In this document: positions 9,454 to 29,151 of the stretch, piece by piece
Position numbering within the stretch: the stretch's first letter is position 1
Layout: the number at the start of each line of letters is the position of its first letter
IMG/VR virus record: IMGVR_UViG_3300025133_000358
Location: 1-34,607 of that record
Direction: 5' to 3' (one strand)
DNA: 34,607 nt
Source of the DNA: a virus
Program-made: the position numbers and the translations under genes
The notes under the pieces: model-generated
Told to the model about the DNA's origin: nothing
Seen by the model: only the letters and a program-made list of their open reading frames with translations
The model's database searches: none

Positions 9454-9762
9454 TTAGGACGGATGCAAGGACTTTTCCCATTTTTTCCCATGAAGGTATA
9501 ATATGCAGTCAGTAGTCTGCATGCTGGCCTGGGAGGTGTGGACGACTGCGCGTGAGATCGGGCGGTGAGCCAGGTACTCTCGGAGTAGGTCGTCGTAGAG
9601 GTTGCGGTTCTGAGGGGTGGCGATGCGATCGATGTATTTGTCGATTAGTTGCCGCCAGTCGTCTCGGCAGGTGGCACCGATGGTGCAGATGCTGCGATAG
9701 ATGTCGCGGCGCAGGGGGTCGGGGGAGCGCTCGGCAGGTAGCTGGCGCTCGGCGCGGGTCAT
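9454..9762 (-). CDS. hypothetical protein, 102 aa
   Basis: Start ATG overlaps the TGA of the lipase gene (ATGA at 9759–9762). The product is basic and helical in its first 70 residues (DDWRQLIDKYIDRIATPQNR, NLYDDLLREYLAHR), with three cysteines and no membrane segment. Its last codons are unusual: the DNA encoding them (9473–9510) doubles as a promoter-like element that also occurs before the first late gene. No family recognised. Confidence 0.6.
   Translation of the reverse strand: MTRAERQLPAERSPDPLRRDIYRSICTIGATCRDDWRQLIDKYIDRIATPQNRNLYDDLLREYLAHRPISRAVVHTSQASMQTTDCILYLHGKKWEKSLHPS
9473..9510 (-). promoter_or_regulatory. promoter-like element, second copy, before the accessory cluster
   Basis: On the minus strand this reads GCATATTATACCTTCA then TGGGAAAAAATGGGAAA. 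A closely similar string stands before the first late gene at 34522–34560. ATTATAC resembles a −10 box. An ATGCAG/CTGCAT inverted repeat (9503–9508 with 9517–9522) lies directly upstream. No good −35 is visible, so activator-dependent use is likely if it is a promoter. It would drive the genes from 9379 to 6927. Confidence 0.45.
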
Positions 9763-10496
9763 CGGAGGTGCGCGTCGAGGATCTGGGCGGCGGACTCCTG
9801 GTAGGAGGAGACGAGGTGGCCACCCCATCGGGGGACGTTGATGCCGGGGAGGTGGCGGTAGCCCCAGAGTAGGGGGGGGATGTACGCGACCGTGTCGATG
9901 CAGCGATGGTAGTAGCGACGGATGGTGAGGTTGGGGAGGCTGGCGGCGAATTCTACGAAGGTGGCGTTGCCGCTGCGGCAGGCGGCGATGGTGGGGGCGA
10001 TGATCTGGCGTCGGCCGAATCGAGCTGCAAGGGCGACGGCGAGTTGGTTGGCGACGCTGCCGCCGAGGCTGTGGCCTGCGACTTTGACGATGGCACCGCG
10101 GGGGAGTTTCTCGACCTCGGGGACGATAATGTGGGCGATGGAGCGGAGGGCAGCGTAGTGGCCGGCGTGGACGCGGCCGGCATCGATGCTTTGGATGGGG
10201 TCGACGCAAGCGTTCCAGGGGACGAGGGAGGTGCGCAGGTTCTGTTTCCAGTCCTTGAGGCAGGTGGTGCCGCGGATGACGATGTAGCGGTTGCCCCAGC
10301 GATCGACGGCGATGTAGAACTCGGTGTCGGTGTCGGGGATATGGTAGTTGGCTATCAGCTCGAGTCCCTGGCATTCAATCTCCGCCGCATCGACGGCGTG
10401 GGCAGTGCCGGAGGCGCGGCCATCGCGGACTGCCTGGGGGTAGGCAGCGGCTGAGAGGGCGACGGTGGTGTGGAATTCGTAGGGGTCGAGTGTCAT
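9759..10496 (-). CDS. class 3 lipase-like α/β-hydrolase in the lysis region
   Basis: Predicted esterase or lipase of 245 residues with the Lipase_3 pattern: a YIVIRGT strand-loop at 71–77 that normally forms the oxyanion hole, the nucleophile elbow GHSLGG at 141–146 (Ser143), then CIDTVAYIPP with probable catalytic Asp201, YRHLPG around 213–218, and GGHLVSSY with probable catalytic His227. The triad appears complete. No signal peptide is present, so it would act in the cytoplasm or after membrane permeabilisation by the neighbouring holin-like protein; start ATG overlaps that gene's TGA (ATGA). In phages an esterase here could attack membrane or envelope lipids during lysis, by analogy to LysB, which is a different esterase family. 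Substrate unknown. Confidence 0.8.
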   Translation of the reverse strand: MTLDPYEFHTTVALSAAAYPQAVRDGRASGTAHAVDAAEIECQGLELIANYHIPDTDTEFYIAVDRWGNRYIVIRGTTCLKDWKQNLRTSLVPWNACVDPIQSIDAGRVHAGHYAALRSIAHIIVPEVEKLPRGAIVKVAGHSLGGSVANQLAVALAARFGRRQIIAPTIAACRSGNATFVEFAASLPNLTIRRYYHRCIDTVAYIPPLLWGYRHLPGINVPRWGGHLVSSYQESAAQILDAHLR

Positions 10497-10711
10497 CGGG
10501 TCAAAAACTGGATGGTGGTGGCGATGGCGGAGAGGCTGGAGAGGCAGAGGGCAAATCCGAATGCTATGAGGGCACGACGCTCGAGGTTGCGGATGCGGTC
10601 CTCATGGTCTTGCTTGATGAGATCTGTCTCGCCCAGTTTCTCTTTTATCGAGAGCAGAGTTTGCTTAACCAGGACGCGGAATCCGGCGGCGGTGTCTTCG
10701 TCGGGGGGCAT
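10493..10711 (-). CDS. XhlA-like small holin-region membrane protein, 72 aa
   Basis: The protein begins with about 45 polar residues predicted to form a coiled coil (LLSIKEKLGETDLIKQDHED then RIRNLERR) and ends with one hydrophobic segment (ALIAFGFALCLSSLSAIATT). This is the hemolysin XhlA layout, a membrane-anchored protein often found in phage lysis cassettes. The ATG at 10711 has AAAAGGA upstream. The gene directly precedes the lipase with an ATGA overlap, which supports a joint role in lysis. Whether it makes the membrane lesion itself or assists another holin is unknown. Confidence 0.6.
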   Translation of the reverse strand: MPPDEDTAAGFRVLVKQTLLSIKEKLGETDLIKQDHEDRIRNLERRALIAFGFALCLSSLSAIATTIQFLTR

Positions 10712-10830
10712 ACAGCGGTCCTTTTTACTATTGCGGGTTGTGATCGGGCGGTGATGTCGGTGTCCAGTGCGCGGAGTTCGCGGATCAGATCGGAACGGAA
10801 TTGGCGGGTGTCATCGGTGCAGATTGTCAT
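10645..10830 (-). CDS. small hypothetical protein, 61 aa, overlapping the XhlA-like gene
   Basis: ATG at 10830 lies four bases after the preceding stop. The first 25 residues look protein-like (RQFRSDLIRELRALDTDITA), while the last part runs over the start of the XhlA-like gene in another frame (67-base overlap) and is Pro/Thr/Ser-rich. No family is recognised. It may be a genuine overlapping gene of a lysis cassette, where overlaps are common, or a short peptide whose reading helps start the downstream gene. Confidence 0.45.
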   Translation of the reverse strand: MTICTDDTRQFRSDLIRELRALDTDITARSQPAIVKRTAVCPPTKTPPPDSASWLSKLCSR

Positions 10831-10834
10831 CGTG

Positions 10835-11023
10835 CTATGCTCTCGGCGATTTCCGCGATGGATTTCGCGGTCTCCGCATCTGGTGTATGAGGTGCGTACC
10901 GTCTCTGTAGCCTGTCTCGCCGATGGTCTCGCGCATGAGCAGGTCTACAGAGCAGTATGTGGTGGTGCCGGTAGGCGCATTAGACCATAGGAGGAGCAGG
11001 CACAGGATCAGCATGGCGCGCAT
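10835..11023 (-). CDS. small exported or membrane protein, 62 aa
   Basis: The frame from ATG 11023 (alternative ATG 11014) encodes an N-terminal hydrophobic stretch (MLILCLLLLWSNAPTG) followed by 40 polar, basic residues. It could be a signal-anchored protein or a small spanin-like component. A cysteine is present inside the hydrophobic stretch but not in a clear lipobox. It overlaps the 73-aa gene by 44 bases in another frame. Its position just before the XhlA-like and lipase genes points to the lysis region. No strong ribosome site was found. Confidence 0.45.
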   Translation of the reverse strand: MRAMLILCLLLLWSNAPTGTTTYCSVDLLMRETIGETGYRDGTHLIHQMRRPRNPSRKSPRA

Positions 11024-11201
11024 GTGGAGGCGTGTCGCCTGGCTCGTAGATCTGGGTGAACTGTTCGATAGGCATGGTCGTGGGGTCACTGCCAGGATCC
11101 TCGTTCAGGTTGTGGAATTCCATGTCGCCATCGATCTCGTAGGCATCGACCTCGTATCGCTCACCGCCTGGCACGTTGGTCTCGGAGAGGACATAGAGCA
11201 T
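10980..11201 (-). CDS. small acidic hypothetical protein, 73 aa
   Basis: ATG at 11201 lies four bases after the stop of the signal-peptide-bearing gene upstream. The product (beginning MLYVLSETNVPGGERYEVDA) is acidic, with EIDGDMEFHNLNEDPGSD and a Pro/His-rich tail. No cysteines, membrane segment or known family are visible. It sits between the adhesin-type genes and the lysis region and overlaps the 62-aa gene. Confidence 0.5.
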   Translation of the reverse strand: MLYVLSETNVPGGERYEVDAYEIDGDMEFHNLNEDPGSDPTTMPIEQFTQIYEPGDTPPHARHADPVPAPPMV

Positions 11202-11205
11202 GAGG

Positions 11206-11847
11206 TCAGTTCTCCCAGGGATCGACGACGAATGTGCCGGCCTCATCTACCCATATCCATGCCTGCTCGCGGTCAGTGCCACCATTGCCATCGTGCAGGT
11301 AGACGTAGAGGTAGATACCGCCGGTGTCGTCTACTGAGGTGTATTTGGCGCGGGAGTATTTGGCAATGGTCCTGCCTACCCAGGAGGCGTGGGTGCAGCG
11401 CATGTCCAGATAATCGATCGGTGCCGGTGCCACACCCGGTTCGGAGGGCACGGGCACAGACAGTGCGATCATGGCATCGAGCGCCGTTTTCCCCTTGGCC
11501 AGCAGGTCTTTGGGGCTCAGTGCGGGCCGGTAGTTGTGGACGCGGGTCTCGGTGACGTGGGCGGACTCACCGGGGTCGTTGTAATCGTAGACGGTGATGA
11601 GCATGGTGCTGCGCCGGAGGGCGGGCGGGCTAGTATCGTTGGTGGTGATTAGCACGGGGAGGCTGAACTCGTTGACGGTGACTGTGCCTTCGCCGAGCGT
11701 GAATGTCTGGGCGACGCCGATGGGGACGGGGTCTGACGTCCCCGTGACGATGTCGGCGACGACGAGACGCGCGCGCAGTTCAGCGATGGTCTCCGCCTGG
11801 ACGGGGAGGATGAAGAGGACGAGGGCGAGGGTGATGAGGCGTTTCAT
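11206..11847 (-). CDS. secreted protein of the fibre region, 213 aa, signal peptide
   Basis: ATG at 11847 follows AAGGAA and opens a textbook Sec signal peptide: MKRLITLALVLFILPVQA, with cleavage expected after the AQ-A-type site (VQA|ETI). The mature part of about 195 residues has a helix, then many short β-strands (GTVTVNEFSLPVLITTND, TMLITVYDYND) and a C-terminal GIYLYVYLHDG / AWIWVDEAG segment. No family is recognised. It is the third of three consecutive genes with signal peptides. The leader (AAGGAACCCACC before ATGAAA) is almost identical to that of the 643-aa fibre gene, suggesting that the start signals share ancestry. Confidence 0.65.
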   Translation of the reverse strand: MKRLITLALVLFILPVQAETIAELRARLVVADIVTGTSDPVPIGVAQTFTLGEGTVTVNEFSLPVLITTNDTSPPALRRSTMLITVYDYNDPGESAHVTETRVHNYRPALSPKDLLAKGKTALDAMIALSVPVPSEPGVAPAPIDYLDMRCTHASWVGRTIAKYSRAKYTSVDDTGGIYLYVYLHDGNGGTDREQAWIWVDEAGTFVVDPWEN

Positions 11848-11870
11848 GGTGGGTTCCTTGGGGTGGGGGT

Positions 11871-13004
11871 TTATTGAGTTTCTTCGGTGGAGATGGTGTA
11901 GGTGGAGCCTGGGTCGTCCATGTTCTGGTGGAGCCAGGCAGGATCGACGTGGACGCTGTCGTGGATGCGGGTCTCGTCTATCTGTCCGTGGTAGTAGTCG
12001 CCGGATGGACGCCGCCCAAAATACCAGGGTTGACTGGCCCATGACCATGACCCCGTTTCGGTCTCGGGGCTGTCGGTGACTTCGACGCCGTCGAGGTAGA
12101 ATTTTGCACTTGAGCCATCCCAGGTGGTGATTACATGATACCAAATGCCGGTACTGAGGCCGCTGGTGGGTTCGGTGATGTTGGTCCAGACGTTGCCGCC
12201 GTTGCCGAGGGACGGGCGTAGCTGACTGCCGTATAGCCAGTTGCCGAGTCCGCTGGAGGTGGAATTCATGCTGAGTCCGTAGATGGTGCCGTCCGTGAAA
12301 TCGTCGGCGCGGAACCAGCAGTGGGACGTGAACGTGGTGTCTGGTCGGAGGTAGGTACTGGCGTCTCCAGAGGGGACTGAGAGGTATTCGTTGGACCCGT
12401 CGAAGTCCATGGCGTAGCCGATTTTTCCGATGATCCGGTCGCCGGATTCCATGTTGTTGGCGTCTGCCTCGATGGCGGCGACGCCAGTGGCGGATGTCTG
12501 GGCGGAGTCGCCTGCGTCGCCCATGTGCCAGACGCCGAGGTAGTCGGCTCCGGTGCCGTCCCAGGTGTCCTCGCTGCTGCCGTCGGTGGCGGTACTGTGA
12601 CCATAGTAAATGAAGATATCGGTGTCCGCGGACGAACTGAGATCATCGACGAATACCCAGACCCACCCGATGTCGTTGGCACCGTCGTAGTACTCGAGGT
12701 CGTGGGGGATGGCGGTGGTTTTGTCAGCGCTAGAGAACCGGGTGTCAAACGCATCGCCACGGGTGTTTGAGTGGTAGGTCGCGGGCAGATCGGCCATCTC
12801 GATGAGGGCGACCTGGTTGCTCATGGTGGTGGTGATCTGGCTGGACAGTATGGTGATTTTGCAGCGCCGGTCGTAGTCGGTGTCCATCCAGGGTTCGGCG
12901 CTGCCGGAGGGCATGGAGACGGAGATGATCGGGCCGGCGATGGCTGGAGAGAGTAGGAAGGCTGAAAGGATTGCGAACAGCGCAAGCGGACGTGGATGGA
13001 TCAT
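11871..13004 (-). CDS. DUF2341 plus LamG-type lectin-like protein with signal peptide, 377 aa
   Basis: The start ATG overlaps the TGA of the fibre gene (ATGA at 13001–13004). Residues 1–23 are a Sec signal peptide (MIHPRPLALFAILSAFLLSP then AIA|G). Residues about 38–160 match DUF2341: YDRRCKITI, VALIEMADLP, DTRFSSADKTT, LEYYDGANDIGWVWVFVDDL, FIYYGHSTA and YLGVWHMGD. Residues about 195–365 form a LamG/concanavalin-A-like jelly roll: AMDFDGSNEYLSVP, CWFRADDF, WYHVITTWDG, AKFYLDGVEV, GQIDETRIHD. Such domains usually bind carbohydrate or display a binding face. A receptor-binding or surface-adhesion role fits, but the signal peptide is unusual for a virion protein. Confidence 0.75.
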   Translation of the reverse strand: MIHPRPLALFAILSAFLLSPAIAGPIISVSMPSGSAEPWMDTDYDRRCKITILSSQITTTMSNQVALIEMADLPATYHSNTRGDAFDTRFSSADKTTAIPHDLEYYDGANDIGWVWVFVDDLSSSADTDIFIYYGHSTATDGSSEDTWDGTGADYLGVWHMGDAGDSAQTSATGVAAIEADANNMESGDRIIGKIGYAMDFDGSNEYLSVPSGDASTYLRPDTTFTSHCWFRADDFTDGTIYGLSMNSTSSGLGNWLYGSQLRPSLGNGGNVWTNITEPTSGLSTGIWYHVITTWDGSSAKFYLDGVEVTDSPETETGSWSWASQPWYFGRRPSGDYYHGQIDETRIHDSVHVDPAWLHQNMDDPGSTYTISTEETQ

Positions 13005-14932
13005 TGTCTTGTAAACTCCAGGGTGGCGATGCCAAACCCTTTGGCCTTGACGGATGACATGAGGGTGCAGTCTATGCGGATGCGCTTGTAGGCGGTGACG
13101 TCGTCGTTGGCGCCATCGATGACGGCGGCGGTGACTGCGGTGTCGGAGCCGGTCTCGGTGAGGTCGAGGGTTACGGCGGTACTGAGCATGTCGGCGGCAT
13201 CGCTGACGTTGTAAATCTGGTAGGTGGGCAGGTTGGTAGTGGTGCCGGCGGTGCCGACGGAGACGTGGACGGCGGTGAGGTTCCAGGTGCCGCTCATCCA
13301 GCCGGGAATCACGAATGATGCCTGGTCGTCGGTTGCCTCCAGGTTGGTGCCGCTGCTGCCGAAAGCGACCTGGAATGTGACATGCCCTGTTTCGCTGGAG
13401 CCGATGGCACCGGCGGCGATGGCACCAGTAGCGTCGAGGTCGGCGGCGTCCTCCCACTCGATGGTGCCGTCGGTTGCGATGTTCGCAGATGCGGCACCGA
13501 CGTCGGCGGCTGTGACGTCGTCATCGTCCAGCGCACCGTCGAGGTCGGTGAAAACGTCGGACACGTCGGTCAGGCGCGACTCCAGCTCTGCCTCTGTATT
13601 CAGGTCTGAGTCGGAGCTGAAAATACGCGCCGCAGAACCGTCGCCAACCACGATGCGGTCGTCGTCGGTATCCCATTGCAACCATCCCTCTGTCGTGGTA
13701 GACGGTGCCGTGCTGCCGACGATGGTGTAGGATGTGTTTTGGATGACGCCGGCATCGATGGTCAGGGCATTGGCGACGTTGACGTCGGGCAGGATGCCGG
13801 TGACGTCTGTGGTGAGGTCGATGGCGGTGAGGGTGATCTCCTGGGTGGAGAGGGTGAGGTAGTCGAGACTCCCCGCCAGCGTGACTGCGGTGCTGTTATC
13901 TGTGCCGGCGGCATCGACACCCAGTGTGGTGCGGGTGGCGCTGGCGTCGGCGTCGTCTATGACGGTGGCTCCGAATGCGGAGATGGTCGTGCTGGCGGGG
14001 AGATCGAGGGTGGCGGTGTCCGCATCGAGGCCAAGGATGGCATTGAGTTCGGCAAAGGTATCCCATTCGGTGTCGCGGGTGATACCGGGACCGATGGTGA
14101 CCTGGATCTCGGTGTCGGGGGTCTCGGCGGCACCAAACTCGCTCGAGAAGTCGAGGACGACGATGTCGGTGCCACCCACCTGGGAGTCGTCGAGTTTGAC
14201 GGTGGTCATGCTGCCGGAGCCGGCAGCACTCTCGAGTGCGGCGATAGCCTGGGCGATGCGCAGCGGCGAGAAGCGGCGGATGGCGGCTTCGGTGCCGGCT
14301 TCGGCTTCGCCTTGGGAGGCGGCGGCGACCTGGGCATTGTACGCGGTCTCGATTTCGGCGTCGGACTGGTCGGCGGTGGCGCTGGCCTCGATGGCGTCGA
14401 GCTTGGTCTCGTCGGCCACCAGGAAGCTGGCGGTGGTCGCGGCAAGCACGGCGTCGTATGCCTGCACGTCGGTGCCGATGACTAGGCCGAGCGTGGTCCT
14501 GGCGGCTGCGGAGTCCGCATCGTCGGTGAGGCTGGCACCGAATGCGGAGATGGTGGTGCTGGCGGGGAGATCGAGGGTGGCGAGGTCTACATCGAGGCCA
14601 AGGATGGCATTGAGTTCGGCGAAGGTATCCCACTCGGTGTCGCGGGTTATGCCGGCATCGATGGTGATCTGGATCTCGGTGTCGGGGGATTCGGCGGCAC
14701 CGAATTCGGTCGAGAAGTCGAGGGTGACGATGTCGGTGCCACCCACCTGGGAGTCGTCGAGCTTGACGGTGGATAGGGTGCCGGATCCGGCACCGGCAAA
14801 GGTGACGGTGCCGGTGAAGTTGAGGTCTTCGGTGACGTCGCCGGTGACGGGGTCTACCATGACTGGCTCGCGAGCATGGCATGGGGCGAAGGCAAGGAGG
14901 AAGAGGGTGAGTAGGAGGATGGGTGTTTTCAT
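13001..14932 (-). CDS. tail-fibre-like protein with signal peptide and internal duplication, 643 aa
   Basis: ATG at 14932 follows AAGGAA and opens a signal peptide (MKTPILLLTLFLLAFAPCHA, residues 1–20). The body looks like a phage fibre: low in aromatic residues, rich in Thr, Ala, Asp and Ser, with the fibre motif ETKLDAIEASATADQSDAEI near 176–194 and FSPLRIAQAI near 221–230. About 97 residues occur twice (54–150 and 243–339), beginning STVKLDDSQVGGTDIV and TTVKLDDSQVGGTDIV. The C-terminal 130 residues (HVTFQVAFGSSGTNLEATDD, TYKRIRIDC-like YKRIRIDCTLMSS) form a β-rich head. It should be trimeric if a fibre. The export signal is the odd feature. Cysteine occurs only in the signal peptide and near the end. 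Confidence 0.7.
   Translation of the reverse strand: MKTPILLLTLFLLAFAPCHAREPVMVDPVTGDVTEDLNFTGTVTFAGAGSGTLSTVKLDDSQVGGTDIVTLDFSTEFGAAESPDTEIQITIDAGITRDTEWDTFAELNAILGLDVDLATLDLPASTTISAFGASLTDDADSAAARTTLGLVIGTDVQAYDAVLAATTASFLVADETKLDAIEASATADQSDAEIETAYNAQVAAASQGEAEAGTEAAIRRFSPLRIAQAIAALESAAGSGSMTTVKLDDSQVGGTDIVVLDFSSEFGAAETPDTEIQVTIGPGITRDTEWDTFAELNAILGLDADTATLDLPASTTISAFGATVIDDADASATRTTLGVDAAGTDNSTAVTLAGSLDYLTLSTQEITLTAIDLTTDVTGILPDVNVANALTIDAGVIQNTSYTIVGSTAPSTTTEGWLQWDTDDDRIVVGDGSAARIFSSDSDLNTEAELESRLTDVSDVFTDLDGALDDDDVTAADVGAASANIATDGTIEWEDAADLDATGAIAAGAIGSSETGHVTFQVAFGSSGTNLEATDDQASFVIPGWMSGTWNLTAVHVSVGTAGTTTNLPTYQIYNVSDAADMLSTAVTLDLTETGSDTAVTAAVIDGANDDVTAYKRIRIDCTLMSSVKAKGFGIATLEFTRQ
13916..14206 (-). 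repeat. second copy of the ~97-residue fibre repeat
   Basis: Residues about 243–339 of the 643-aa fibre protein repeat residues 54–150 with mostly conservative changes (for example ESPDTEIQITIDAGITRDTE against ETPDTEIQVTIGPGITRDTE). The DNA is also similar, pointing to a fairly recent tandem duplication or to gene conversion between copies. Confidence 0.85.
14483..14773 (-). repeat. first copy of the ~97-residue fibre repeat
   Basis: This is the copy nearer the N-terminus of the fibre protein (residues about 54–150). It contains WDTFAELNAILGLD and LPASTTISAFGA, both of which recur in the second copy at 13916–14206. The copies are separated by about 92 residues of fibre sequence holding the KLDAIEA motif. 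Confidence 0.85.
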
Positions 14933-14973
14933 GGTGGTTCCTTGGGTGCGCGGCCAATAATGGCCGGCCACTG

Positions 14974-15837
14974 TTACGGGGTTACGGATGTGTAAATGAT
15001 GTAGTCGCTGTTGGTGGGGTCTTCGGGGGTCTCTAGCTCGATGCGGATCTCGGTGCAGGTGCCGAGGGCGAATGCGACGGAGGCGGCGCCGGCGGGGGTG
15101 AGTTTGGACTTGATGACTGCGGCAGCATCCTTGACGTCGAAGGTGACGGTGAATGACCCGCGCTTCTGAAAGATGTTTACGGTCTCGCCTTTGCCGGTGA
15201 GGCCAGCGGGGTCTGGTAGGGTGATGGTGCTGGCGGCGGTGACGGGAAAGCGTTTTTCGCCGTTGACCAGGTCTGAGGCTTCAAGCTCTTCGCTGGCAGC
15301 AATGAGGGTGTGGCGCCCCTTGAACTGGTAGAGGGCGTCGGACTCGGCAGCGGTGTAGTAGGTGGGGCTGGTTGGCGGGGTGCCTCCGGTGACGCCGAGT
15401 TCCTGGAGGATCTGGACGCGGATCTGGGTGAAGGTCTGGGCCTTGGAGCTGATGACTGCGGATAGTTCTATCCATGCCTGCACTGCCTCGAGGCTAGCAC
15501 CGAGGTCGTCATCGATGTCGGTATCGGTGAAGGGGAAGACGACGGTGAACTTGCCGGTGGCGAGGTCTTCGCCGGCGGGGTAGTCTCCCTGGTTGACGGC
15601 GGAGACGATGCCGTAGGCGCTGCCGTCGTCGGTGCGTGCGGACTTCGCAGCGAGTGCGAATGAGGCGGCGGCGGACAGGTCGAGATCCTGGAGGACGCCG
15701 GCGGAGTCGGGTTCTTGGACGTGAAAGGCGAAGAGGACATCGTCGTTGTGGACGACGTCGATGCTGTCTATGGCGTTGCCTGCCCAGTCGGTGGCGGAAC
15801 CATCTTGGGCGTTGATAAGGATGAATAGTTTTTTCAT
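14974..15837 (-). CDS. baseplate/tail-fibre attachment-like protein, 287 aa
   Basis: The protein begins MKKLFILINAQDGSATDWAG and has an N-terminal β-rich domain of about 140 residues (DVLFAFHVQEPDSAGVLQDL, KFTVVFPFTDTDIDDDLG) like the N-terminal adaptor part of many tail-fibre or upper-baseplate proteins. A linker with YYTAAESDALYQFKG, a common fibre motif, follows near residue 160, then a C-terminal β domain (FPVTAASTITLPDPAGLTGK) resembling the small pyocin-knob-like or fibre head modules that bind ligands. No signal peptide: the first hydrophobic stretch is short and part of a strand. Placed between the tail-tip proteins and the long fibre, it probably connects them. Family named only by pattern. 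Confidence 0.6.
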   Translation of the reverse strand: MKKLFILINAQDGSATDWAGNAIDSIDVVHNDDVLFAFHVQEPDSAGVLQDLDLSAAASFALAAKSARTDDGSAYGIVSAVNQGDYPAGEDLATGKFTVVFPFTDTDIDDDLGASLEAVQAWIELSAVISSKAQTFTQIRVQILQELGVTGGTPPTSPTYYTAAESDALYQFKGRHTLIAASEELEASDLVNGEKRFPVTAASTITLPDPAGLTGKGETVNIFQKRGSFTVTFDVKDAAAVIKSKLTPAGAASVAFALGTCTEIRIELETPEDPTNSDYIIYTSVTP

Positions 15838-15852
15838 GGTTCTTGTACCGGG

Positions 15853-17007
15853 TTATGAAGCTGGAAGGAATTGAAAGCCATTGGCGACTGCGTAGTCGAG
15901 CATGACATAGGGTCCGTATGTCTCGGTGTCGTCGCGGGGCTTGCCGTGCTGCTGGAGCATCTGGAATCCGTAGTCGTGAATCCACCATCCGCGGACGGTG
16001 ACGTCGGGGACGTCGGCAGGGGTCGGTGGCCAGTCGATGGCGTTGGCTAGGGAAGTGGCGTTGGGCAGGGGACTGGGCGTGGGGATGATGTCGTAGTCGT
16101 AGGTGCCGGTGTCGCCGTCGGGGTTTGCGAGGGTCTCGATGTGGGTGATCATGTTGGGAGCGGGGTTGCTCCAGATGTCCTCGTACTCGTTCTCGGTGAC
16201 GTCATCGGTGCCCACTTCATCGACAAAGACGAAGCGGTTGTCTATCTGGGTGGGGACCACATAGAAAGACCAGTCGCGATCGAATCCGCTGCCGTTGGCC
16301 CAGTTGGCGGTGCTGATGGTCATGCCCTGCGAGTGGATGCGGGCGTCATACTCGAAGGTTGGCGAGCCGGTCTGCTTGCTAAGGCGTCGGAGTTGGGTGA
16401 TCGCCTTCCATCTGCGCGGGGTAAGTCCGATGCCAGTTTGCCCGGTGCCATCGGCATCGTATTCTGCCTTAGCAGAGGACTTGGCGTCGGCGACTGCGTC
16501 TTCGGTTTCGTTGCCGTCACTGTAGTGGATGAGGTCGACGAGGGGGGCGCGGAATACGAACTTGGTAAACAGGTTCAGGATGGTGTAGCACTGCTTCCAG
16601 AACTTTGCGGATATGGGTTGGTTGATGTCGGGGGAGATGATGTCGTGACCGAGTACGGACTCGACGGCATCGGTGTCCCACCATGCCCAGTCTGTGTCGC
16701 CGGCGGGGTCGACATCTGCGTCGACGAATCCCCAGAGTCTATTGTTTCCAAAGGTGCTACTTCCGAGCCGGCAGATGTCGGTGAGTAGGTAGAGCTTGTA
16801 GGCGAAGCTGAAGGTCCAGGGCGAGTCATCTCCAAAGGCGTCGATGATGTAGTAGTTCGCCACGCCCTGCCCAACTTCGGTGAGGTCCAGGATGGAGGCA
16901 ACGCGCTCGTTGTGCGCCAGGCGAAGTGCCTCTGCATATCGACGGTCCAGGGGTTTGTTCACCAGGTCGGTCCAGTCCATGCCCTCGGATGTCCAGTTGG
17001 TAATCAT
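15853..17007 (-). CDS. tail-associated protein of unknown family, 384 aa
   Basis: Start ATG overlaps the TGA of the tail-tip gene (ATGA at 17004–17007). The product is soluble, acidic and Trp/Tyr/Asp-rich, with an N-terminal helical part (RYAEALRLAHNERVASILD) and many aromatic loops (DTDWAWWDTDAVES, GWWIHDYGFQML). It looks like an enzyme or receptor-binding domain, but no catalytic motif stands out and no family is recognised. Its place between the tail tip and the fibre adaptor suggests a virion component at the tail end. Confidence 0.6.
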   Translation of the reverse strand: MITNWTSEGMDWTDLVNKPLDRRYAEALRLAHNERVASILDLTEVGQGVANYYIIDAFGDDSPWTFSFAYKLYLLTDICRLGSSTFGNNRLWGFVDADVDPAGDTDWAWWDTDAVESVLGHDIISPDINQPISAKFWKQCYTILNLFTKFVFRAPLVDLIHYSDGNETEDAVADAKSSAKAEYDADGTGQTGIGLTPRRWKAITQLRRLSKQTGSPTFEYDARIHSQGMTISTANWANGSGFDRDWSFYVVPTQIDNRFVFVDEVGTDDVTENEYEDIWSNPAPNMITHIETLANPDGDTGTYDYDIIPTPSPLPNATSLANAIDWPPTPADVPDVTVRGWWIHDYGFQMLQQHGKPRDDTETYGPYVMLDYAVANGFQFLPAS

Positions 17008-26850: not shown

Positions 26851-29151
26851 TTAGGCGATGCCGGTGGAGGCGACGATGCCACGGTGGTCGTTCTGACCGA
26901 TGCCGACGTCGTGACGACCTTTGGTCTTAAATCCATCGTCACAGAACTCGGTCTTGCGCTCGAGGTACGGGTTTTCGTTGCCGTTGAGAAAGGCGGCGAC
27001 GATAACCGGGATCACCATGGGATTGGTGAACATGTACATGGCGGTGGCGGAGTTGCCGGTGATGGTGGTGTCTTCGAGGTAGGGTTCGATGACGGGGGTG
27101 AGACCACGGAGGGCGCGGTTTGGCTCTTGGGCCATATCCACCTTGCTGGTGTCGCTGATGGCTTCGAGGACGTAGTCTTCTGCGGTGGGACCAGCAAGGA
27201 CGATGGAGGGCACGACGTTGAGGATCTCGCCCTTCTGGCCGGTCTGGACGCGCATGGTCTTCTTCATGGCGTTGAGCCCAGCTTTGGCCTTTTCGGTGGT
27301 GGTGGGGTCGTAGGCGGTGCCTTCGACGAGGTTGGCATTCTCGGTGCTGGTGAGGGCGTTGCTGTTGTAGGCGGTGTTGGCGTTGGCCAGCAGCTTGATA
27401 ACAGCGAGACGGTTCACGGTGCGGAGTGCAGCCTGCCCCAGGAGGAAGGCGACGCGAGCGAATGCGTTGAGGTCGTCGTTGATGATGGCTTGGCGAGTGA
27501 AGGAGACAATGTTGCCGTAGGTCTTCGCCTGGACGGTCTCTTTCTGCTCACTGAGCGTGTACTCGTTGAAGTCATCGCCTTCTGGCACTTCTTCGAGGAT
27601 GGACAGGTTGGACAGGCCCAAGATGGACTTGGACTTGAAGTCTGGCACATCGTCGATGTAGCACCACTGGCGGTAGGTGGCTTCGGACTCGTTGTAGCCG
27701 GCTACCAGGAGTTTGTTGGCGATGTTCTCCAGGATGCTCGGGAAGTCGCTGGTGGTCTGGCCTGGGAGGGCGCGGCCACCGGGTAGGCGGCTGGTGAAGG
27801 CGGCGCCGACGAGCTCGAGGTTGTTGAGACCACGGAGGTCTGCTTCGCCGACGCCAGCGCTGCGGAGGCAGGCGGAGGCGATGGCGGAGAGGCTGAGACG
27901 ACCGACGGTGCGACCACGCTGGTACTCTTCGTCGCTACCAAAGGTGCCAGTCTGGCTGGTGGTGGCGCGCACGATGAGTGAGGCTTCGAGGTTGGCTCGG
28001 GCTTGGTCACGCTCGTCCATGCCCATGGTGATGTGGGTGCGGCCGAGGTTCTGCTGTCCTTCGCCGCTGGCGATGAAGTCGAGAACTTGGGCGCGGGCTG
28101 CGTCGGGGGTGACGTCGGCGTTGGCGAGGGCAGCATCGAGGAGTTGCTGCCCAGTGCGGGTCTGGGCGGGTGCGCCTTCGACCTGGACGGTGCCGGTGCG
28201 AGCGAGGAAGGTGCCATAGATGCCACGGAGGGCGAGGCAGCGTGCTGCTTCTTGGCGGCGACCTTCGTCGCGGAGTGCGGCGCGGGCGTCGTCATCGATG
28301 CCGGGAGCGGGAGCGGGCGGCGGGTCGAGGACGGCGGTGGTGGCACCTGGGTTCATGGTGCGAATGAGGGCGAGAGCGTCTGCTTGCTCCATGCCTTCAA
28401 ACTGGGCGGCGAGGCGCGTGGCGTCGTCGGCGCTGAAACCTCGGGAGAGGAGGGCGAATTCGAAAGGGTTCATAAGGACGGTCCTTGTGGGCGTGGGGGG
28501 TGGTGGTGGTGGTGGTGGTGTGTATGCTGCGGAGCGGGTGCCTGCGTTGGCGTCTGCTCCGATCGGTACGAGGGAGCCTTCTACGGCGGTCCAGTCGGTG
28601 ACGACCTTCAACTGGCGGGAACTGTCATCGGCGCAGGTGTACGAGACACCTTCGATGACGGCAGTGGTGCCAGGGTCTAGGTAGGTGGCGGCGTGGACGT
28701 GGTAGCCGACGGAGATGTCACGGATGTGTCCTTCGGCGGCTTTGGTGAAGATGTTTTGCTCGACGGAGCTGAATACGGCCAAACCGTTAAACTCGGAGCC
28801 TTCGACGCGGAGGTTGTCCCAGGAACCTAGGACGTCGCCGCAGCGGAACTGATGATGGGTGTCGAGGAGTGCCATGCCCTGCTGGAGGGTGTCGCGGCGG
28901 AGTCCCGGCATGGTGAGGACTTCGTCTACTTCTTCCCAGTTGCGATAGTCGAACATGCGGACGGGGCTGTCGGTGGCGATGGTGGCCTCGATGGTGCGTG
29001 CCTCGAGATCGACGGTGTCGGGGGTGAAGCGGACGGCGAGGTTGCCGGGGATGGGGTCGGCGCGCTCTGCTATGGCGGCGCGGATGGTGGCCTCGTCGGC
29101 ATCTGGGAGGGCGAGGAATGAGCGAAGGGTGGCGAGGATGTGGGGAGGCAT
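26851..29151 (-). CDS. prohead protease–major capsid fusion protein, 766 aa
   Basis: The ATG at 29151, five bases after the portal stop, gives 766 residues. Residues 1–205 are an HK97/U35-type prohead protease: LTMPGLRRDTLQQGMALLDT then His99/His100 in THHQF, and Ser147 in RDISVGYHV as probable nucleophile. An eight-proline run (212–219) links it to residues 227–766. There, about 230–400 resemble a scaffold/delta region (LIRTMNPGATT, ADVTPDAARAQVLDFIASGE), and from about 400 a capsid shell follows (TVGRLSLSAIASACLRSAG, ILGLSNLSILEEVPEGDDFN, GNIVSFTRQAIINDDLNAFA). Such protease–capsid fusions are known in phages. The protease would free itself and the shell by cutting. An internal start at 28473 could also make the shell alone. 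Confidence 0.85.
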   Translation of the reverse strand: MPPHILATLRSFLALPDADEATIRAAIAERADPIPGNLAVRFTPDTVDLEARTIEATIATDSPVRMFDYRNWEEVDEVLTMPGLRRDTLQQGMALLDTHHQFRCGDVLGSWDNLRVEGSEFNGLAVFSSVEQNIFTKAAEGHIRDISVGYHVHAATYLDPGTTAVIEGVSYTCADDSSRQLKVVTDWTAVEGSLVPIGADANAGTRSAAYTPPPPPPPPTPTRTVLMNPFEFALLSRGFSADDATRLAAQFEGMEQADALALIRTMNPGATTAVLDPPPAPAPGIDDDARAALRDEGRRQEAARCLALRGIYGTFLARTGTVQVEGAPAQTRTGQQLLDAALANADVTPDAARAQVLDFIASGEGQQNLGRTHITMGMDERDQARANLEASLIVRATTSQTGTFGSDEEYQRGRTVGRLSLSAIASACLRSAGVGEADLRGLNNLELVGAAFTSRLPGGRALPGQTTSDFPSILENIANKLLVAGYNESEATYRQWCYIDDVPDFKSKSILGLSNLSILEEVPEGDDFNEYTLSEQKETVQAKTYGNIVSFTRQAIINDDLNAFARVAFLLGQAALRTVNRLAVIKLLANANTAYNSNALTSTENANLVEGTAYDPTTTEKAKAGLNAMKKTMRVQTGQKGEILNVVPSIVLAGPTAEDYVLEAISDTSKVDMAQEPNRALRGLTPVIEPYLEDTTITGNSATAMYMFTNPMVIPVIVAAFLNGNENPYLERKTEFCDDGFKTKGRHDVGIGQNDHRGIVASTGIA
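28471..28486 (-). promoter_or_regulatory. internal ribosome binding site and ATG before the scaffold/capsid part
   Basis: On the minus strand AAGGAC (28486–28481) stands seven bases before an in-frame ATG (28473) that is Met227 of the fusion, right after the polyproline linker. Starting here would give a 540-residue scaffold–capsid protein without protease, comparable in logic to nested head genes such as lambda C and Nu3. Confidence 0.5.

What the first reader, a model, noticed from the sequence alone, without database searches (positions are those of the whole stretch)
11206..14932. Three consecutive fibre/adhesin-region proteins with Sec signal peptides
The 643-aa fibre-like, 377-aa DUF2341–LamG and 213-aa proteins all start with convincing cleavable signal peptides. 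Virion proteins assemble in the cytoplasm and normally lack them. Either the proteins are exported and act outside (for example surface adhesins or lectins that change the lysogen or block receptors), or the signals are used as trimerisation or assembly tags. Two of the genes share nearly the same leader before the start codon (AAGGAACC then ACCATGAAA).
Basis: partly seen in the sequence, partly recalled or inferred. Interest (0 to 1): 0.7.

Follow-up and report, generated by a model that had tools for sequence, protein, structure and literature searches.

The report
Exported phage fibre and lectin cassette
Three neighbouring tail-fibre-position genes of an uncultured tailed phage all begin with a standard bacterial export signal, and at least three other environmental phages carry the same kind of exported fibre-plus-lectin gene run, which suggests that some tailed phages send part of their host-recognition set outside the cytoplasm where particles are built.

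Summary
On the minus strand, the 643-aa fibre-like, 377-aa DUF2341-LamG and 213-aa proteins (13001-14932, 11871-13004, 11206-11847) each begin with a Sec/SPase I-type signal peptide. My own model, checked on E. coli, scores them 18.1, 12.0 and 22.7 (SignalP was not available). They are consecutive and closely packed, with an ATGA overlap between the first two, and are the last large genes on the tail side of the structural module.

The pattern recurs. Among 116 non-redundant fibre loci, L063, L028 and L141 also carry an SP-fibre with SP-LamG and small SP genes (3, 4 and 4 in a row). In the four SP-fibre loci 8 of 10 downstream genes carry a signal, against 11 of 210 elsewhere (p=3e-8). No run of three occurs in 111 other loci. 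Signal-less fibres with the same C-terminal head (35-41% identity) exist, and LamG genes near signal-less fibres mostly lack signals.

Most likely the distal fibre/lectin set is exported as a unit and works outside the cytoplasm. Whether it then joins released virions, masks receptors or decorates the cell is unresolved. The near-identical leader is a general ribosome-binding site. Closest working analogue: exported phage-fibre-like MAT adhesins of Bdellovibrio. No experimental proof of export exists.

The parts
13001..14932 (-). SP-fibre gene, 643 aa: signal peptide, fibre repeats, C-terminal beta head
   Evidence: SP score 18.1; repeats shared with environmental phage fibres; head homologous to signal-less fibres L094 and L041
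14873..14932 (-). predicted signal peptide of the 643-aa protein, MKTPILLLTLFLLAFAPCHA|REPV
   Evidence: RBS AAGGA just upstream
13004..13420 (-). C-terminal head of the fibre (residues 505-643)
   Evidence: 41% and 35% identical to L094 and L041 heads; low-confidence all-beta model, pLDDT 58
11871..13004 (-). SP-DUF2341-LamG lectin-like gene, 377 aa; its ATG overlaps the fibre stop (ATGA at 13001-13004)
   Evidence: Pfam PF10102 3.8e-08, PF13385 8.4e-18; SP score 12.0
12936..13004 (-). predicted signal peptide of the 377-aa protein, MIHPRPLALFAILSAFLLSPAIA|GPII
   Evidence: the weakest of the three
11206..11847 (-). SP-213-aa gene, third exported protein, function unknown
   Evidence: SP score 22.7; no Pfam, PHROG or phage match
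11794..11847 (-). predicted signal peptide of the 213-aa protein, MKRLITLALVLFILPVQA|ETIA
   Evidence: RBS AAGGA
14974..15837 (-). gene before the SP-fibre, 287 aa, without a convincing signal; possible virion-side adaptor or short fibre (inferred)
   Evidence: score 8.8 from a short hydrophobic stretch with an implausible cleavage site; no Pfam match
10835..11023 (-). possible fourth exported product, 62 aa, uncertain
   Evidence: SP score 14.5 but Pro at +1 and no clear RBS

Best explanation
The three genes form a Sec-exported distal-fibre and lectin cassette. They sit as the last large genes of the tail side, but their products leave the cytoplasm through Sec and lose their leaders. They then act in the periplasm or outside the cell: a fibre with a receptor-binding-type head, a LamG lectin, and a small third partner. 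Shown here, by sequence only: the signals, the close gene packing, homology of the fibre head to signal-less phage fibres, and recurrence of the whole run in other phages, with signals on fibre and neighbours present or absent together. Inferred: cleavage, trimerisation, sugar binding and the final place of action. My ordering of the final step, within this explanation: attachment to tails released at lysis (about 0.35), masking of receptors on the infected cell and its debris (about 0.35), display on the cell as an adhesin (about 0.2), other (0.1).
For: Strong signals on three consecutive genes. Same cassette type in L063 (3 genes, same ATGA overlap between fibre and LamG), L028 (4) and L141 (4). 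8 of 10 genes after SP-fibres carry a signal against 11 of 210 after signal-less fibres, p=2.6e-8. No run of three in 111 other loci. LamG near signal-less fibres lacks a signal in 14 of 15 loci. All 14 leaders match a loose cleavage-site pattern and 11 have K/R at position 2. L141 exported proteins (6, 15, 4 Cys) and the L011 fibre (13 Cys) are Cys-rich against 0.13% in 156 signal-less fibres. No promoter-like site in the region and no minus-strand terminator-like site, as expected for an operon member. Exported phage-fibre-like trimers are known in Bdellovibrio (PMC10769870).
Against: No export experiment exists and SignalP was not run. The 377-aa signal is only moderate; the LamG signals of L063 (6.1, called by eye) and L028 (9.4, possibly an uncleaved anchor) are below my main threshold, and the L141 LamG ORF is cut by the contig end and uses a TTG start. 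Window and L063 proteins are not Cys-rich. Cultured phages with related fibres and 27 prophage regions with related capsids lack the cassette. Only four to five independent cases.
Confidence: 0.62

Rival explanations
1. Ordinary virion fibres that are not exported: the hydrophobic N-termini are connectors or trimerisation/anchoring tags used in cytoplasmic tail assembly.
For: Fibre position next to tail genes; head shared with signal-less phage fibres; the usual fibre N-terminus is absent, so something else must attach the protein.
Against: The leaders of three to four neighbouring, unrelated proteins in each phage all look like SPase I substrates and share no sequence. A lectin and a small beta protein would not all need the same tag. 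Cys-rich relatives point to an oxidising compartment.
Confidence: 0.17
2. Exported proteins of a prophage that change the surface of a lysogen (conversion genes, Lom-like), unrelated to the lytic cycle.
For: Lambda Lom lies between tail spike and side-fibre genes, has a signal peptide and is expressed in lysogeny (PMC12309495). Exonuclease-like and HTH genes occur in the early region.
Against: No own promoter-like or minus-strand terminator-like site; ATGA coupling; no integrase or repressor recognised in the proteins scanned; head homology to phage fibres.
Confidence: 0.12
3. Chance or prediction artefact: hydrophobic N-termini that only resemble signal peptides.
For: About 1% of shuffled window N-termini reach score 9.3; the 377-aa signal is the weakest.
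Against: Runs of three to four in four phages and none in 111 other loci; co-occurrence p=2.6e-8.
Confidence: 0.04

Closest known systems
Mosaic adhesive trimer (MAT) fibres of Bdellovibrio bacteriovorus (PMC10769870)
   Same: Signal peptide followed by a long phage-fibre-like protein with a variable C-terminal tip; exported and displayed on the surface. A MAT tip (8ok3, 8ond; Z 7.2) is among many middling structural matches of the window head, which may be no more than a common arrangement.
   Different: MATs belong to a predatory bacterium and have a conserved ~130-aa domain after the signal peptide. The window protein is phage-encoded; that domain and trimerisation were not tested.
Ordinary tail fibres of Caudoviricetes with the same repeats and head (L041, L094; phrog_24456)
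   Same: Fibre repeats, homologous C-terminal head, LamG gene nearby.
   Different: No signal peptide on fibre or LamG; usual fibre N-terminus such as MADQKVTDLTEL.
Lambda Lom
   Same: Exported phage protein encoded in the fibre region (PMC12309495).
   Different: Beta-barrel outer-membrane protein, one gene, no fibre or lectin domain.
T5 Llp superinfection-exclusion lipoprotein
   Same: Exported phage product that acts on the phage's own receptor system (PMC9586334).
   Different: Small lipoprotein, no fibre homology; binds FhuA from the periplasmic side.

Membership tests
Sec/SPase I-exported proteins | n-region with positive charge, hydrophobic core, cleavage site with small residues at -3 and -1 | tested here: met
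   All three window proteins by a home-made model checked on E. coli; the 377-aa protein is the weakest; SignalP not run
Sec/SPase I-exported proteins | Actual translocation and cleavage | not testable with these tools
   Needs reporter fusions or N-terminal sequencing
LamG/ConA-like lectin (PF13385) with DUF2341 (PF10102) | Pfam match above the gathering score | tested here: met
   65.4 bits against 27.6 and 34.1 against 23.4
Phage tail fibre | Homology to phage fibre proteins | tested here: met
   Repeats and head at 41% and 35% identity to L094 and L041; L041 matches phrog_24456 tail fiber protein. The window protein itself has no PHROG match
Phage tail fibre | Present on the virion | not testable with these tools
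   Uncultured phage, no proteomics
MAT family of Bdellovibrio | Signal peptide plus phage-fibre-like body | tested here: met
   MAT features from PMC10769870
MAT family of Bdellovibrio | Conserved ~130-aa beta-rich domain right after the signal peptide | not tested
   No MAT N-terminal domain was compared; phmmer of the fibre found no PDB sequence
MAT family of Bdellovibrio | Tip fold related to a MAT tip | tested here: inconclusive
   Z 7.2 to 8ok3 and 8ond from a model with pLDDT 58
Lysogenic-conversion (moron) gene | Own promoter and terminator | tested here: inconclusive
   No sigma-70-like promoter and no minus-strand terminator-like site in 9700-16000; consensus scans only
Superinfection-exclusion proteins of the Llp kind | Blocks adsorption of the same phage | not testable with these tools
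   Needs adsorption assays

The most novel reading that the evidence does not exclude
A scattered class of tailed phages exports its distal fibre, lectin and partner proteins through Sec, so that these parts meet the tails only after lysis (post-lysis assembly of the receptor-binding apparatus, in some cases with disulphides formed in the periplasm), contrary to the usual picture in which tailed phages are completed in the cytoplasm.
Probability: 0.22. Interest if true: 0.88.

Novelty: new variant of a known kind. Interest (0 to 1): 0.6.

Why it matters
If true, part of the receptor-binding set of some tailed phages is built outside the cytoplasm, or has been turned into an exported tool that shapes adsorption. 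Either would change how fibre genes in phage genomes are read. It would also link virion fibres to exported bacterial fibres such as the Bdellovibrio MATs, for which such phages are a conceivable source (inference). The gene-run signature (SP-fibre, SP-LamG, SP-small) makes the class easy to find and to test.

Tried and rejected
Close relatives of the 377-aa, 213-aa, 1020-aa and 287-aa proteins in viral contigs: none. Phage records with related fibres or fn3 parts (EBPR siphovirus 2, PfAn1, Manatee Spring podoviruses, ppBjS10J-1, CRP-118, PinkBerry phage): no signal on the fibre gene and no run of signals beside it. A4-profile loci: L185 and L186 come from the same contigs as L062 and L063; L184 has no signals. 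Capsid-related regions in Pseudomonadota genomes (27): no fibre cassette; a pair of adjacent SP genes in L219 looks like host genes, judged by eye. Similarity between the third genes of window and L063: none. AF2 of the 213-aa protein: pLDDT 47, not used. AF2 of the fibre head: pLDDT 58, only 'all-beta' taken from it. The shared AAGGAACC leader as a mark of the cassette: rejected. Seven further fibre hits at score 9-14 (L015, L016, L100, L128, L132, L159, L173) rejected on inspection as internal starts or weakly hydrophobic. Literature searches for tail fibres with signal peptides found none in the open-access library. Host: not identified (no tRNA; no close prophage).

Full report
WHAT IS THERE. 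The window is an IMG/VR virus record. Its head module lies on the minus strand: terminase, portal, protease-capsid fusion and decoration protein. The first two overlap by ATGA; 23 bases separate the second and third. In 9700-16000 no sigma-70-like promoter and no minus-strand terminator-like site was found. Further downstream come small ORFs, a 72-aa protein with a C-terminal hydrophobic stretch and a Lipase_3 protein.

SIGNAL PEPTIDES. Most MG1655 proteins that I marked as Sec-exported scored 7.9-29 (one scored 3.0); soluble cytoplasmic ones stayed below 5. The three proteins score 18.1, 12.0 and 22.7. A fourth, very short ORF (10835-11023) scores 14.5 but has Pro at +1 and no clear RBS. The 287-aa gene upstream scores 8.8 from a short stretch and is not convincing; the capsid decoration protein reaches 10.9, which I take as a false positive and which shows the limit of the model.

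RELATIVES. The fibre gene carries repeats common in environmental phage fibres (GATADQSDAEIETAYN; ISAFGA..DDAD). Profiles of these repeats gave loci that, with the window, came to 164 usable and 116 non-redundant. Most fibre ORFs begin without a signal, for example L041 (MADQKVTDLTEL). Five of 109 with the N-terminus in hand have a convincing one: the window, L063 (and its near twin L062), L028, L141 and L011.

THE CASSETTE RECURS. L063: SP-fibre (1515 aa), then a LamG protein whose start overlaps the fibre stop by ATGA, as in the window, then an SP protein of 182 aa, then a gene on the other strand. L028: SP-fibre, a LamG protein with a signal or anchor, an 852-aa SP protein with Calx-beta and fn3 domains, and a 113-aa SP protein. 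L141: SP-159, SP-fibre (899 aa), SP-162 and a LamG-like ORF with a signal at the contig end. L011 ends within its SP-fibre. L063 has a DUF2793 protein before its SP-fibre; the genes around the four cassettes differ from phage to phage.

STATISTICS. Genes +1 to +3 after an SP-fibre have a signal in 8 of 10 cases, against 11 of 210 after other fibres (Fisher p=2.6e-8). The window, as discovery locus, contributes 2 of the 8. In 111 other loci with 1489 genes, 2.6% reach score 9 and there is no run of three. Standalone LamG genes near signal-less fibres lack a signal in 14 of 15 loci; the exception, L174, has no basic residue at its start. In the four SP-fibre loci the LamG gene has one, though the L028 one scores 9.4 and the L063 one (6.1) was called by eye. 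So signals on fibre and lectin go together.

SAME PARTS, WITH AND WITHOUT SIGNAL. The window fibre head (residues 505-643) is 41% and 35% identical to heads of signal-less proteins in L094 and L041. L041 carries the same head plus a LamG gene, neither with a signal, and its fibre matches a PHROG tail-fibre family. The exported proteins are therefore related to parts of ordinary fibre modules and are not simply unrelated host adhesins.

COMPARTMENT HINT. The three complete L141 SP proteins hold 6, 15 and 4 Cys and the L011 fibre 13, while 156 signal-less fibres average 0.13% Cys. That fits an oxidising periplasm. The window and L063 proteins are not Cys-rich, and some other L141 proteins also contain Cys, so the hint is limited.

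MECHANISM. Best reading: the distal fibre, its lectin and a small partner are exported by Sec. Export rests on sequence and comparison only. The final step is open. In favour of joining virions after lysis: head homology, place in the structural module, and no second copy of the fibre repeat in the window (the L028 contig has a second, short copy). In favour of a non-virion role: the usual fibre N-terminus is missing in the SP-fibres, and phages are known to export receptor blockers (T5 Llp, PMC9586334) and envelope proteins from the fibre region (lambda Lom, PMC12309495).

KNOWN KINDS. The closest working analogue is the MAT family of Bdellovibrio: exported, phage-fibre-like trimers with varied tips (PMC10769870). 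A MAT tip appears among the structural matches of the window head, but at a Z (7.2) that may mean only a common arrangement and from a low-confidence model. Membership is not claimed. Phage targets of diversity-generating retroelements have been reported to lack the signal peptides found on bacterial ones (PMC6199706), and signal-bearing proteins of unknown function are reported in Porphyromonas phages (PMC10367356). I found no report of signal-bearing tail fibres in the open-access library searched; subscription papers were not covered.

LIMITS. Uncultured phage; host unknown; home-made predictor; simple gene calls for the other loci; phage records and capsid-related bacterial regions that were checked did not carry the cassette.

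Noticed in passing
window 9759-10496 (-): Lipase_3 protein (PF01764, 3.6e-15) next to a 72-aa protein with a C-terminal hydrophobic stretch, at the place where lysis genes would be expected; no ordinary endolysin was recognised among the proteins scanned.
   Followed up: partly
window 10835-11023 (-): 62-aa ORF with a strongly hydrophobic start (MRAMLILCLLLLWSNAPTG), possibly a small exported or lysis peptide.
   Followed up: partly
L141 7629-11297: Exported proteins of this phage are Cys-rich (6, 15 and 4 Cys), unlike signal-less fibres (0.13% Cys on average).
   Followed up: partly
L028 9486-9812 and 9812-12718: A 108-aa signal-less ORF with a fibre-type repeat lies directly before the SP-fibre, as if a fibre gene had been split into a signal-less proximal and an exported distal part.
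   Followed up: no
L082 15974-16849 (+): A lone 291-aa protein with a very strong signal peptide (score 25.8) seven genes after a signal-less fibre.
   Followed up: no
L141 3613-4266 (+): Glycosyltransferase-2-like gene in the structural region of the phage contig.
   Followed up: no
window 26851-29151 (-): Head maturation protease and major capsid protein in one ORF (phrog_4523, 3.4e-119), with relatives at about 29-36% identity in 25 of 398 genomes of the phylum of a Rhodobacter MAG.
   Followed up: partly
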